A DNA stretch of 64,000 nt, from NCBI GenBank assembly GCA_945902075.1, contig CAMDMA010000001.1, positions 1 through 64,000 of the forward strand. The letters run 5' to 3'. Under the pieces are notes generated by a model that was not told where the DNA came from, did not search any database, and saw only the letters and a list, made by a program, of their open reading frames with translations. Made by a program: the position numbers and the translations under genes. The stretch is from Candidatus Kuenenia stuttgartensis. GTDB lineage: Bacteria; Planctomycetota; Phycisphaerae; Phycisphaerales; SM1A02. Below, one piece after another: positions 6,110 through 9,462 of this stretch. Each line of letters starts with the position of its first letter. Position 1 is the first letter of the stretch.

Positions 6110-7006
6110 ATGGATGTGCTGCTCGAAATACTTGCAGATGTCGGGGTACTCGCGCTGTTTGCCGGTTTCGTTGCAATTCTTGCAACCGTCGTCGTTGAAC
6201 GCTTTGGTGGTTCGCTCGGCGGAGTACTGTCGAGCCTCCCGACTACGATTGTTCCCGCTGCGATCGGAATCTTTGGACGAGATTCGGATCCCGATCAATT
6301 CCGGCGCGCGATGGCGTTTGTCCCAGTCGGAATCCTGCTCAATGCGGGGTATCTCGTACTTTGGCGCATCATCCCTGCACGGCTCGGCAAGCGCTCGCGC
6401 AACCATTTACTTCTTTCGACGCTGGTTCTCGCACTCGGTGCGTGGTTCCTCGCGGCATCGACGATCATCGTGCTGCATGACTTCGCGCAGCCAACGATCG
6501 CGCAGTCGATCACCATCGGCTGTCTCGCATTCGCCGCTGGTGTACTTCTCGGGATCGCCGCGAACCGAAGCCCTCATCCAGCTCCGCGTGGTTCGCATCG
6601 TGTTAGTCCGGCCGTGCTCGCACTTCGTGGAATTGCCGCGGCGCTCGTCATCGGCGGCGCGCTCCTCCTCGCACGATTGGGGCTTCCGGTAGCGAGCGGA
6701 ATTGCTGCTGTGTTTCCCGTGATATTCACAACCATCATGGTTGCGACCTGGATCGCTCAAGGCGCGCACGTTCCAACGGGTGCTGTCGGACCAATGACGC
6801 TTGGAACCCTTAGCGTCAGCGCGTACGCACTGCTCGCGACATTGATCTTTCCATTGATGGCTACTCCTCTCGCAGCGCTCCTCTGTTGGATCTTGGCGGT
6901 CACGCTTGTGAGTGTGCCCTCTTACGTTTTCCTTCGCTCGCGGCGCGCACATCACGCTCGAACGATATCTCTTTCGAATTCGGCGAGTGTCAATACAGCG
7001 CGTTGA
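6110..7006 (+). CDS. Uncharacterised multi-pass membrane protein
   Basis: About 298 residues, with eight or nine hydrophobic helices and short loops, beginning MDVLLEILADVGVLALFAG. A GTG six bases earlier is in frame, but the ATG at 6110 is the more natural start. The pattern FGGSLGGVLSSLPTTIVPAA near residue 35, and a second similar half (GIAAVFPVIFTTIMVATWIAQG), suggests an internally duplicated transporter-like protein. No named family is recognised. It lies 38 bases downstream of another membrane protein on the same strand and may be cotranscribed with it. Its 3' end overlaps the convergent photolyase gene by 55 bases. Confidence 0.75.
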   Translation: MDVLLEILADVGVLALFAGFVAILATVVVERFGGSLGGVLSSLPTTIVPAAIGIFGRDSDPDQFRRAMAFVPVGILLNAGYLVLWRIIPARLGKRSRNHLLLSTLVLALGAWFLAASTIIVLHDFAQPTIAQSITIGCLAFAAGVLLGIAANRSPHPAPRGSHRVSPAVLALRGIAAALVIGGALLLARLGLPVASGIAAVFPVIFTTIMVATWIAQGAHVPTGAVGPMTLGTLSVSAYALLATLIFPLMATPLAALLCWILAVTLVSVPSYVFLRSRRAHHARTISLSNSASVNTAR

Positions 7007-9462
7007 TTACGCTCTGCGAATGAACCCAACACACGACCCGCGAGCCCGACTCCGGAAAGGAATGCATCCTCGACGCGTGTTCCTGACATCCAGTCGCCCG
7101 CGATGCCGATCGCGGTGTGCGCGTCGAACGCTGAGCCAACTCCAACTTCCCGCGACGCAAGCGCAAATCGAAATCGATGCGCAATCGCGTGCATCGGCTC
7201 AGGAATCGCGATGCCAAACGAGTGACCGAGCGCGCGCATCGCCGCAACCATCTCAACCGCGACAGCTGCCGGCGTGCGTTCAAGCCTTTCCTCCGACCAC
7301 TCACCTCGACCGAGCACAACCCAACGATCGACACCGTCGCACGCACGACCAGGTTTCGACGAAACGCGAGACAGCCACGCGAGTGTGCCGCCAACCTCAC
7401 TTGTGCCCGAGAGAATTTCTGCATGGTCGAAGGGAAAGTCAATCCGCACATGGGAAGCCAACATCATGGACCACATCGCTCGCATCGGTGAGCGAGAAGC
7501 AATTGCCGCGAGCCCTGGAGCACAGCTTCCAAGGAGAGCCGCAGTCTGCGGGGCTGGCGCGGTAGAGAGGACGACATCGAATTCGCCACATTCGCGCGTC
7601 GATCCATCAGCACCCGTTCCTCGGAGTATCCATCCCGTCGAGCCACGGGTCATGGATTCGATTCGGGTGTTTACCACTACATCCACGCCCTGAGCGATGT
7701 GCGCGCACAACGAACTCATACCTGGCAGCGCAACAAAGCGCTGAACTCCCTCAAGCGAGGTCACGCCATGCGCTCCGACTTCGGCAAATCGGCCATGCCA
7801 TCGCGCCACGACACCATCTGAGCTCCAACTCTCAATCCAGTGTGCGAACCGCGGGTCGCGCGCAGTGAAATACTGCGCGCCGTGGTCGAAGGCGCCAGCA
7901 TCACCCCGACGCGTACTCATGCGACCACCAACGCCGCGCGACTTCTCAAAGATCGTGACATCAACACGATGTTCCGCGAGTGTTCTCGCGCAAGCAGTTC
8001 CTGCGATTCCCGCCCCGATCACGGCAACGCGAAGCGGATACGAGCGCCTCGAAACCCTTTGAGCAAAGGTATCGATGTCGAGACGTGCAGCGTGCTCGGT
8101 GGTGGATCTCGGACGAATCGAGCCGAACACCGGGGTTTTCGGCAAGAATGGTCTATCGAAAAGTCCGAGGCACCAAAGTAGCCCGCCCGTGCTCGCTGGA
8201 TCCGCACCATCAAGAGCAAAGCGGTGGTTGAGGTCAATGAGCGTCGCGAGCGCGGACTCGGGCGAGTTCGTCCAACCAACAATCGACTTTCCCCAAGTCA
8301 TACGAACATTGTTGTGAAGTTCTCCGTGCACCACGAGCGAGCGCTGCGCGAGATCCCACAATCGGTCGCCGGTTCGCCCACTCGCAAGTTGTTCCCAAGA
8401 GAGAACCGCGCGCGGATCGCTCGCATGTTCCTGAAGCGTTCGTCGTGCCCACAGCGGTAGCGCATGCACGGACTCGTGGTCCGGTGAATGTCGGCACCAT
8501 TGGTAGGCGAGCTCGCGCCAGACCAGCAATTCCTCGAGATACTTGCTCGCTCCAACTGCATGCGCTTCACGCGCGAGTCGCATCGGCGACACCATTCCGA
8601 AATGGAGGTAGGCCGACATGCGAGAAACCCCAGGAACCGCCGCGTCGTTTCGATCCCTCGCGTAATCGGCAAGCCGCGTCGCACGAAACTCGTTCCAACG
8701 CGCGAGACCCGCTTCCGTTCCGCCCACGGTGTCGACGACGGGAGCAACAGAGTGATCAATTTCAAGGCTCGCGACGCTGTCTGAAATCGAAAGCGTGTTC
8801 CAATCGAGCTCGGGCAGTCCATGATCGACAAACGGCCAGCATTTTCCCTGCCAAGAACGCGTGGGCCACACAAGATCCACGCGCGCCGCACGCTCGCGCT
8901 CCGTCGCGTCACGAAAGGCAAATGCACGATCAAACACGCCATCAACGCGGTTCATTGGAACCACGCAGGCGGTATCGACCGCCACGACGGTCCGACCGCT
9001 TCGGCGCGCGATTGATGCGATGCGATCAGGGAATGGTGTGGACGGAAAGTCCTCGGTCACAATGAGATGGGCACGCGCCGCGAGTCGGTCGATTACCGAA
9101 TCGGATGGTGCGAGCACATCAAGCGACGCCGCGTATGGCACTCCCAGCCTGGCGAGTTGCCGAGAAAAGTCGCGCATGCCCTCGAGTAAAAACGTGGCGT
9201 GGCGGTCCGAGAGCCGCGGATGCATCCCGCCGAGCCCACTGAAGACAAGAAGTGGCAGCTGAAGACGAGTCGCCAATTCTCCAGCAAGGTCCAAAGCCGG
9301 ATTTTCATCCGCTCGCAACGCATGGTGCGCCCAATAAAGCACGAAAGCCGCACCTCCACCGGGTCCACCACCACCCACGAGCGAGGCCCGTTCCGCGAGA
9401 TGGTGCGGAACATTCGCGAGTAGATCATGAAGTGCAGCCGGGGTGTTCGTGGTATTTGGCAC
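6952..9462 (-). CDS. Class II DNA photolyase fused to a renalase-like FAD/NAD(P) oxidoreductase
   Basis: An uninterrupted 836-residue frame joins two proteins. Residues ~35-450 match class II cyclobutane-dimer photolyases: antenna-domain start FVLYWAHHALRADENPALDL, then LLVWRELAYQWCRHS, ELHNNVRMTWGKSIVGWT and LNHRFALDGADP, ending VFGSIRPRS. From residue 477 a separate FAD-binding domain begins (VAVIGAGIAGTACARTLA, then FEKSRGVGGRMSTRR and FDHGAQYFTARDPRF). This is the pattern of renalase-like NAD(P)/FAD oxidoreductases, and it closes with IGIAGDWMSGTRVEDAFLSG. The first half should repair UV dimers using light and reduced FAD. The second half could supply electrons to flavin, which is inference. 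The start is GTG with GAAGG six bases upstream. No frameshift or linker stop is visible, so the fusion looks genuine. Confidence 0.92.
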   Translation of the reverse strand: MPNTTNTPAALHDLLANVPHHLAERASLVGGGGPGGGAAFVLYWAHHALRADENPALDLAGELATRLQLPLLVFSGLGGMHPRLSDRHATFLLEGMRDFSRQLARLGVPYAASLDVLAPSDSVIDRLAARAHLIVTEDFPSTPFPDRIASIARRSGRTVVAVDTACVVPMNRVDGVFDRAFAFRDATERERAARVDLVWPTRSWQGKCWPFVDHGLPELDWNTLSISDSVASLEIDHSVAPVVDTVGGTEAGLARWNEFRATRLADYARDRNDAAVPGVSRMSAYLHFGMVSPMRLAREAHAVGASKYLEELLVWRELAYQWCRHSPDHESVHALPLWARRTLQEHASDPRAVLSWEQLASGRTGDRLWDLAQRSLVVHGELHNNVRMTWGKSIVGWTNSPESALATLIDLNHRFALDGADPASTGGLLWCLGLFDRPFLPKTPVFGSIRPRSTTEHAARLDIDTFAQRVSRRSYPLRVAVIGAGIAGTACARTLAEHRVDVTIFEKSRGVGGRMSTRRGDAGAFDHGAQYFTARDPRFAHWIESWSSDGVVARWHGRFAEVGAHGVTSLEGVQRFVALPGMSSLCAHIAQGVDVVVNTRIESMTRGSTGWILRGTGADGSTRECGEFDVVLSTAPAPQTAALLGSCAPGLAAIASRSPMRAMWSMMLASHVRIDFPFDHAEILSGTSEVGGTLAWLSRVSSKPGRACDGVDRWVVLGRGEWSEERLERTPAAVAVEMVAAMRALGHSFGIAIPEPMHAIAHRFRFALASREVGVGSAFDAHTAIGIAGDWMSGTRVEDAFLSGVGLAGRVLGSFAERNQRAVLTLAEFERDIVRA

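What the first reader, a model, noticed from the sequence alone, without database searches (positions are those of the whole stretch)
6952..9462. Class II photolyase fused in one frame to a renalase-like flavoprotein
An 836-codon frame with no stop joins a complete class II photolyase (to about residue 450) to a complete FAD/NAD(P) oxidoreductase starting at residue 477. Photolyases need reduced FAD, and a covalently attached flavin reductase could recharge it or protect it. Photolyase and renalase-like genes are often neighbours in other bacteria, to my knowledge, but fusions seem uncommon.
Basis: partly seen in the sequence, partly recalled or inferred. Interest (0 to 1): 0.68.

Follow-up and report, generated by a model that had tools for sequence, protein, structure and literature searches.

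The report
Photolyase fused to a renalase enzyme
One bacterial gene really does join a light-driven DNA-repair enzyme to a second flavin enzyme of the renalase kind; many planctomycetes share the join, and in many relatives the protein also ends in a short peptide that looks like a docking tag for the DNA-replication clamp.

Summary
AlphaFold gives a confident two-domain body (pLDDT 93.9, pTM 0.93); the halves match M. mazei class II photolyase (Z 45.9) and Pseudomonas renalase (Z 44.3). Most mapped photolyase residues and the FAD motifs of both halves are kept. It is no artefact: 80 of 80 loci returned from genome contigs hold both halves in one frame, and the join has near-constant length (25-27 residues between two landmarks, 64 sequences). 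It is not rare: 22 of 393 sampled genomes of the phylum, plus one cut by contig ends. Fused photolyase halves form one clade; renalase halves do not. New here: outside the window's genus, 41 of 88 fusions end in Q-x-(x)-L-F like bacterial sliding-clamp peptides (background 2 of 329; stand-alone renalases 0 of 29). Stand-alone planctomycete class II photolyases meet this in 4 of 48, a looser LF test in 18 of 48. The tail seems to belong to the photolyase and to sit at the new end after fusion. The window's own protein lacks it.

The parts
6952..9462 (-). whole fusion gene, 836 aa plus stop, GTG start
   Evidence: both halves in one ORF in 90 loci
8050..9423 (-). class II-type photolyase half, residues 14-471
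   Evidence: TIGR00591 281.7 bits; 3umv E 3e-49; M. mazei 4cdn Z 45.9 over 14-471
8272..8358 (-). stretch holding the Trp triad codons W369, W390, W397 (M. mazei W360, W381, W388)
   Evidence: mapped by hand through the alignment; W in 64, 64 and 63 of 64 aligned fusions
8035..8049 (-). short join between the halves, residues 472-476
   Evidence: between the two ranges; 25-27 residues between H457 and the first G of GxGxxG in 64 sequences
7009..8034 (-). renalase half, residues 477-818
   Evidence: 4zcc E 4e-49; 4zcc Z 44.3 over 477-818
7999..8016 (-). GxGxxG dinucleotide-binding turn, residues 483-488
   Evidence: G483, G485, G488 in 64 of 64
6955..7008 (-). C-terminal tail, residues 819-836; end of a long predicted helix, no clamp-like peptide here (many relatives have one at this place)

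Best explanation
A bifunctional two-flavin enzyme. The N-terminal half works as a class II-type, light-driven CPD photolyase. The C-terminal half is a renalase-type FAD domain that takes electrons from reduced nicotinamide nucleotides (renalase is known to oxidise NAD(P)H isomers). The two halves are held in a fixed geometry by a short join of near-constant length. The most likely reason is electron supply: the renalase flavin refills the photolyase flavin when it has been oxidised by accident, a low-flux job that a slow nicotinamide oxidase could do. Shown here: the single frame, conservation of the fusion, both folds (predicted), kept key residues, constant join length, a single clade of fused photolyase halves. 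Inferred: CPD repair activity, two bound FADs, NAD(P)H use, and electron transfer between halves. In many relatives (not in the window's genus) the chain also ends in a sliding-clamp-type peptide, which would bring the enzyme to DNA or replication sites; that is inferred from sequence.
For: Both halves in one ORF in 80 of 80 loci kept. AlphaFold pLDDT 93.9, pTM 0.93 for the window protein and 92.7, 0.92 for relative L011. Folds. Key residues in 64 aligned fusions: R271, W369, W390, M388, N412, W430, R437, R450 and G483, G485, G488, G513, R514, D526, G528, P636 in 64 of 64; W397, G789, D790, E798 in 63 of 64; N272 in 62; E311 and W315 invariant. Join length 25-27 residues in 64. Fused photolyase halves on one side of one branch, SH-aLRT 96 (45 fused of 95 available, 32 of 49 and 24 of 31 stand-alone rows drawn), with members from records titled as several phyla. 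Independent hints of a functional link: photolyase-family frames near 3 of 29 stand-alone renalases and beside two Asticcacaulis renalase genes. Renalase (human) oxidises 2- and 6-dihydroNAD(P) (PMC10297141, passages); bacterial renalase was solved with NADH, NAD+ and NADPH (titles).
Against: The Trp triad is intact, so photoreduction should work unaided. Renalases described so far pass electrons to oxygen (recalled). Stand-alone renalases interleave with fused ones (AU p 0.00024 against one clade of fused halves), so coupling is not obligatory. At least 11 of 22 fused genomes also hold a separate class II photolyase, and the window's genome holds a separate photolyase that scores high with both Pfam photolyase families, so the fusion is not the cell's sole repair enzyme. 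7 of 15 other genomes of the genus lack the fusion. pTM supports a defined arrangement, but no coordinates were available to see contacts or measure the flavin distance.
Confidence: 0.45

Rival explanations
1. Two light-stress enzymes joined for co-expression only. The photolyase mends DNA, the renalase half independently clears NAD(P)H isomers that form under photo-oxidative stress, and no electrons pass between them.
For: Known renalase substrates are isomeric NAD(P)H (PMC10297141, passages, on human renalase). Renalase-like genes elsewhere sit in what look like light or oxidative-stress islands: folE in 3 of 8 and DUF3429 in 5 of 8 plasmid regions read; in Pseudomonas mendocina an FAD-dependent oxidoreductase lies with phrB in a light-regulated region (PMC9758184, passages; whether it is a renalase was not checked). 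Renalase halves and stand-alone renalases interleave.
Against: Join length is nearly invariant (25-27 residues in 64 sequences) and a confident whole-chain model was obtained twice; co-expression alone would tolerate a variable linker.
Confidence: 0.35
2. The renalase half is mainly a structural or DNA-positioning module, with its oxidase chemistry reduced or lost in the fused context.
For: The window protein departs from the family consensus at one conserved tryptophan of this half (F at position 764, W in 63 of 64).
Against: The FAD-binding landmarks checked are kept in 63-64 of 64 sequences and K703/R706 in 62 of 64; a purely structural module would be expected to lose them.
Confidence: 0.1
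3. Sequencing or assembly artefact that joined two neighbouring genes.
For: None found.
Against: Both halves in one frame in 84 distinct loci, the others at 40-67% identity to the window protein and from many assemblies, records titled complete chromosomes among them (L026, L067).
Confidence: 0.01

Closest known systems
Class II CPD photolyase (M. mazei MmCPDII 2xry/4cdn; rice 3umv)
   Same: Fold over residues 14-471 (Z 45.9, rmsd 2.1, 448 residues); Trp triad and most mapped FAD, substrate and DNA residues kept.
   Different: Fused C-terminal renalase; TIGR00591 score 281.7, below its cut-off of 550; own clade apart from the stand-alone class II proteins sampled; N385 where M. mazei has Y376 and F439 where it has W431.
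Bacterial renalase (Pseudomonas, 4zcc/4zcd/5krq/3kkj)
   Same: Fold over residues 477-818 (Z 44.3, rmsd 1.6, 327 residues, 36% identity).
   Different: Attached to a photolyase by a short join instead of standing alone.
Renalase-like and photolyase-like gene neighbourhoods
   Same: Same pairing, as neighbouring genes: L165, L180 and (within 1 kb) L097 in the phylum, and two Asticcacaulis plasmids.
   Different: Separate genes. The five neighbours in L165, L180 (two) and the plasmids (two) match Pfam FAD_binding_7, one of them also DNA_photolyase; the L097 neighbour, cut by the end of the stretch, matches DNA_photolyase only. They were found with class I-like queries.
Beta-sliding-clamp clients with a QLxLF-type peptide (transposases, Y-family polymerases)
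   Same: Relatives of the window protein end in the same kind of peptide (41 of 88); consensus Q-L-x-L-F, almost always C-terminal in transposases, from PMC4549789 (passages).
   Different: No binding shown; the window's own protein and the other 7 distinct complete members of its genus lack it.

Membership tests
Class II CPD photolyase | class II photolyase fold | tested here: met
   Z 45.9 to 4cdn against about 30-32 for class I and cryptochrome entries listed; sequence E 3e-49 to 3umv against 6e-8 to 1iqr
Class II CPD photolyase | Trp electron triad and FAD-contact Asn (M. mazei W360, W381, W388, N403; residue roles recalled) | tested here: met
   W369, W390, W397, N412
Class II CPD photolyase | CPD and DNA contact residues (M. 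mazei R256, N257, E301, W305, M379, W421, R429, R441; roles recalled) | tested here: met
   R271, N272, E311, W315, M388, W430, R437, R450; the equivalents of Y376 and W431 are N385 and F439
NCBIfam TIGR00591 (phr2) | curated score cut-off 550 bits | tested here: not met
   281.7 bits; so it is described as a divergent class II-type lineage, not as a TIGR00591 member
Class II CPD photolyase | light-dependent CPD repair | not testable with these tools
   needs purified protein
Renalase | renalase fold and FAD-binding residues | tested here: met
Renalase | oxidation of 2-/6-dihydroNAD(P) | not testable with these tools
   needs assay
Beta-clamp client (window protein) | QLxLF-type peptide at the C-terminus | tested here: not met
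   0 of 8 distinct complete members of the genus, window included
Beta-clamp client (relatives) | QLxLF-type peptide at the C-terminus | tested here: met
   41 of 88 outside the genus; in the one such member modelled, L011, the tail 803-816 has pLDDT under 50
Beta-clamp client (relatives) | physical binding to DnaN | not testable with these tools
   no complex prediction or assay available

The most novel reading that the evidence does not exclude
In Planctomycetota, class II-type photolyases are clients of the replication clamp: a terminal QLxLF-like peptide, seen in LF-type form on stand-alone class II enzymes and placed at the end of the renalase half after fusion, docks them on DnaN, so that CPD repair is delivered to replicating or gapped DNA by an enzyme that carries its own nicotinamide-driven flavin reductase.
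Probability: 0.4. Interest if true: 0.78.

Novelty: new variant of a known kind. Interest (0 to 1): 0.57.

Why it matters
Photolyase must keep its FAD reduced; how cells do so other than by light is not settled (recalled). A natural, conserved fusion to a nicotinamide-using flavoprotein makes that directly testable on one chain. The clamp-like tail on relatives, not seen on 29 stand-alone renalases and in looser form frequent on stand-alone planctomycete class II photolyases, would if confirmed make photolyase part of the replication tool-belt, for which the searches made gave no paper.

Tried and rejected
Artefact: rejected. Rarity of the fusion: rejected. An operon explanation around the window gene: of nine neighbouring frames scanned, four have Pfam matches (a GH38 alpha-mannosidase and an outer-membrane/HlyD/ABC efflux set) and five have none; nothing ties them to the fusion. 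Fission remnants: reading upstream of the glycine-rich turn in 29 stand-alone renalases showed no clear photolyase remnant by eye (at most L139, weak), so whether stand-alone renalases arose by loss of the photolyase half or the fused half was exchanged stays open. A view of the inter-domain contact and flavin distance was wanted, but no coordinate file was available. Burkholderia plasmid gap beside the renalase gene: the 548-aa minus-strand frame tested there has no Pfam match; the overlapping 369-aa frame was not tested. Plasmids: 37 records matched, 25 were listed, and 8 regions were read; their gene tables are incomplete.

Literature, all as search listings unless said: photolyase with renalase, 0 papers; class II photolyase, fusion, flavin reductase, 20 listed of 281, each with 0 mentions of class II photolyase; photolyase with COG3380, 0; photolyase, Planctomycetes, fused, 4, none about this by title and abstract start; photolyase with clamp-binding motif, 0; photolyase, sliding clamp, class II, 4, none about it by title and abstract start; photolyase, FAD-dependent oxidoreductase, DUF3429, 11, of which PMC9758184 was read in passages; photolyase with clamp, replisome, DnaN, 12 listed of 127, each with 0 mentions of photolyase. 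Only an open-licence library was searched.

Limits of the tail count: the strict pattern is Q, one or two residues, L or M, then F or W, within the last 10 residues. Stand-alone planctomycete class II photolyases meet it in only 4 of 48; their 18 of 48 is the looser test ([LMI][FW] in the last 6; background 11 of 329; shuffled tails of the 49-row set mean 2.2, at most 6 in 500). Searches counted 49 rows there, one of which (L212) is from a record titled Gemmatimonadaceae; one search took it out. In the sample drawn from the phylum of L039 it is 0 of 29 by either test, so the tail is not a general class II trait; of two other stand-alone photolyases, L216 (record titled Gemmatimonadaceae) has it and L214 does not. 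Sequences are related, so Fisher's p (1.4e-29) is not a true probability; the trait changes at least 18 times on the fusion tree, so it is not one inherited event. Of 14 Y-family frames used as a positive control, 11 showed a Q..LF-type peptide (10, L247 after the wrong frame had been taken first); L251, L254 and L255 did not; in these polymerases the peptide lies about 30 to 250 residues before the end. Frames cut by a contig end (L004, L060, L068 among them) were dropped before the counts. L130 breaks frame near its end and was kept.
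Full report
WHAT IS THERE. The frame at 6952-9462 is real but lies on the minus strand: 836 codons from a GTG at 9462 to a stop at 6952-6954. Profile searches find a class II photolyase model over residues 39-469 (TIGR00591, 281.7 bits, below that model's own cut-off of 550) and NAD(P)/FAD-binding families from residue 478. Against solved structures, residues 19-472 match rice class II photolyase (3umv, E 3e-49) and residues 478-813 match Pseudomonas renalase (4zcc, E 4e-49).

IT IS A CONSERVED ARCHITECTURE. A scan of genome contigs confirmed 260 relatives and kept the best 80; in 80 of 80 both halves lie in one open frame, as they do in the own locus and in 9 genomes of kin (8 of the genus, 1 of the family). 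The test was blastp cover of more than 250 photolyase and more than 200 renalase positions in one stop-to-stop frame. In one of them, G004 (L090), the start of the photolyase half lies in another frame. After six duplicates were set aside 84 distinct loci remain, the others 40-67% identical to the window protein. Because the 80 were ranked by similarity to the whole fusion, they say nothing about frequency. A sample of the phylum (393 genomes, at least 90% complete, drawn evenly) does: 22 carry it, and in one more (G323) it is cut by contig ends. In the window's genus 8 of 15 other genomes searched have it. Of 247 genomes from the phylum of L039 (record titled Desulfobacterales) only the centre itself showed it.

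STRUCTURE. AlphaFold with 64 aligned sequences gives pLDDT 93.9 and pTM 0.93. Residues 14-471 superpose on M. mazei class II photolyase (Z 45.9, rmsd 2.1 over 448) and 477-818 on Pseudomonas renalase (Z 44.3, rmsd 1.6 over 327). A second prediction, of relative L011, gives pLDDT 92.7 and pTM 0.92.

RESIDUES. Mapped by hand through the alignment, the Trp triad (W369, W390, W397), the FAD asparagine (N412) and substrate and DNA residues (R271, N272, E311, W315, M388, W430, R437, R450) are kept, in 62 to 64 of 64 aligned fusions. The roles are recalled from work on the M. mazei enzyme. Two positions differ: N385 for M. mazei Y376 (64 of 64 fusions) and F439 for W431 (62 of 64). In the renalase half G483, G485, G488, G513, R514, D526 and G528 are kept in 64 of 64 and G789, D790, E798 in 63 of 64; the window has F at 764 where 63 of 64 have W. 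Between H457 and the glycine turn there are 25-27 residues in all 64.

ORIGIN. In a tree of 101 photolyase domains the 45 fused ones are one side of one branch (SH-aLRT 96), apart from stand-alone class II enzymes of Planctomycetota and of the sample (a random draw of the rows at hand, no class I outgroup, midpoint root). Fused members come from records titled Planctomycetota, Pseudomonadota, Thermodesulfobacteriota, Gemmatimonadota, Myxococcota and Rhodothermota; some bin titles are doubtful. The renalase halves behave differently: stand-alone renalases of the phylum fall among them, and one clade of fused halves is rejected (AU p 0.00024, 39 against 27 rows, six rows left out, four of which one search had flagged as long-branched). 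Loss of the photolyase half in some lineages, or exchange of renalase halves, would both explain it; no clear photolyase remnant was seen upstream of 29 stand-alone renalases.

CONTEXT. The window neighbours give no clue. The own genome has a separate photolyase at C9:38691-40085 (PF00875 160 bits, PF03441 290 bits). At least 11 of 22 fused genomes have a separate class II photolyase. Elsewhere the two kinds of gene meet as neighbours: near 3 of 29 stand-alone planctomycete renalases (L165 and L180 directly beside, L097 within 1 kb with another frame between) and beside both Asticcacaulis renalase genes among 8 plasmid regions read; some of these regions also hold folE (3 of 8) or DUF3429 (5 of 8). 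In Pseudomonas mendocina phrB lies with an FAD-dependent oxidoreductase in a light-regulated region (PMC9758184, passages).

Outside the window's genus many fusions end, after a poorly conserved linker, in peptides such as QLDLF, QLELF, QLSLF, QKSLF or QRTLW. The pattern Q, one or two residues, L/M, F/W in the last 10 residues occurs in 41 of 88 such fusions, 0 of 8 of the window's genus (window included), 0 of 29 stand-alone renalases, 4 of 48 stand-alone planctomycete class II photolyases, 0 of 29 from the sample, and 2 of 329 other long frames from the loci at hand; shuffled tails gave a mean of 1.0 and a maximum of 5 in 500 rounds for all 96 fusions. In internal 10-residue windows of the same 88 proteins it occurs in 7 of 2640. 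In 34 of 41 cases the peptide ends at the last or next-to-last residue. A looser test, LF-like in the last six residues, is met by 18 of 48 stand-alone planctomycete class II photolyases against 11 of 329 background frames and 0 of 29 in the sample. The tail of L011 (QLELF) is predicted disordered (pLDDT under 50 over 803-816). This is the consensus and place of beta-sliding-clamp peptides (Q-L-x-L-F, almost always C-terminal in transposases; PMC4549789, passages; QLPLWG of mycobacterial ImuB, PMC10421592, passages), and Y-family polymerase frames of fused genomes carry QLALF (the window's own genome), QLSLF, QLELF and the like in 11 of 14 frames examined, there 30 to 250 residues before the end. 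The tail thus seems to go with photolyases of this phylum, and to sit at the new end when a renalase is added. Binding has not been shown.

MECHANISM. I take the fusion to be a working photolyase with an on-board nicotinamide-using flavin domain. Because a photolyase regains its reduced flavin at each repair (established chemistry, recalled), only accidental oxidation has to be mended, and a slow nicotinamide oxidase would suffice (inference). The constant join length and the predicted defined arrangement favour coupling over mere co-expression; the intact Trp triad, the existence of stand-alone renalases within the same family and the lack of a measured path keep the rival (independent clearing of NAD(P)H isomers under light stress; substrates from PMC10297141, passages) close behind.

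NOVELTY. Each half is of a known family; I found no paper on the fusion (no paper with both words) or on a clamp-bound photolyase in the open-licence library. I call it a new variant of a known kind.

Noticed in passing
C-termini of fusions outside the window's genus (within L009-L083 and L116-L134): Sliding-clamp-like Q..LF peptides end 41 of 88 fusions; none on 29 stand-alone renalases.
   Followed up: yes
L141, L144-L146, L154, L158, L184, L193, L195, L202 and others: Stand-alone planctomycete class II photolyases often end in LF-type tails (18 of 48 by the loose test, 4 of 48 by the strict one); those of the sample do not (0 of 29).
   Followed up: partly
renalase halves of fusions and stand-alone renalases among L094-L182: Fused renalase halves are not one clade although the fused photolyase halves are: fission or domain exchange.
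   Followed up: partly
G000 contig C9:36696-40085: A separate photolyase with, about 2.8 kb before its FAD domain, a weak FAD_binding_7 hit in a long frame (604 aa); similar spacing appears in G003, G006 and G011. Unexplained neighbour.
   Followed up: no
L261:4857-6026, L268:4854-6023, L165:2472-3818, L180:2583-3827: Proteins of about 390-450 aa whose only Pfam match is the photolyase FAD domain (FAD_binding_7) sit directly beside renalase-like genes.
   Followed up: partly
L024, L025, L004: Records titled Klebsiella pneumoniae, Candidatus Kuenenia and Limnohabitans carry planctomycete-type fusions (L004 looks identical to L084, from a genome of the window's genus): the bins are probably misnamed.
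   Followed up: no
L216: A very long-branched class II-like photolyase in a record titled Gemmatimonadaceae that also ends in a Q..LF-type tail.
   Followed up: no
window residue N385, codon 8308-8310 on the minus strand: All 64 aligned fusions have Asn where M. mazei class II photolyase has Tyr376, five residues before the triad tryptophan W390; meaning unknown.
   Followed up: no
G004:C69:20584-22853 (L090): In this congener the first part of the photolyase half lies in another frame than the rest; a frame break or a sequence error.
   Followed up: no
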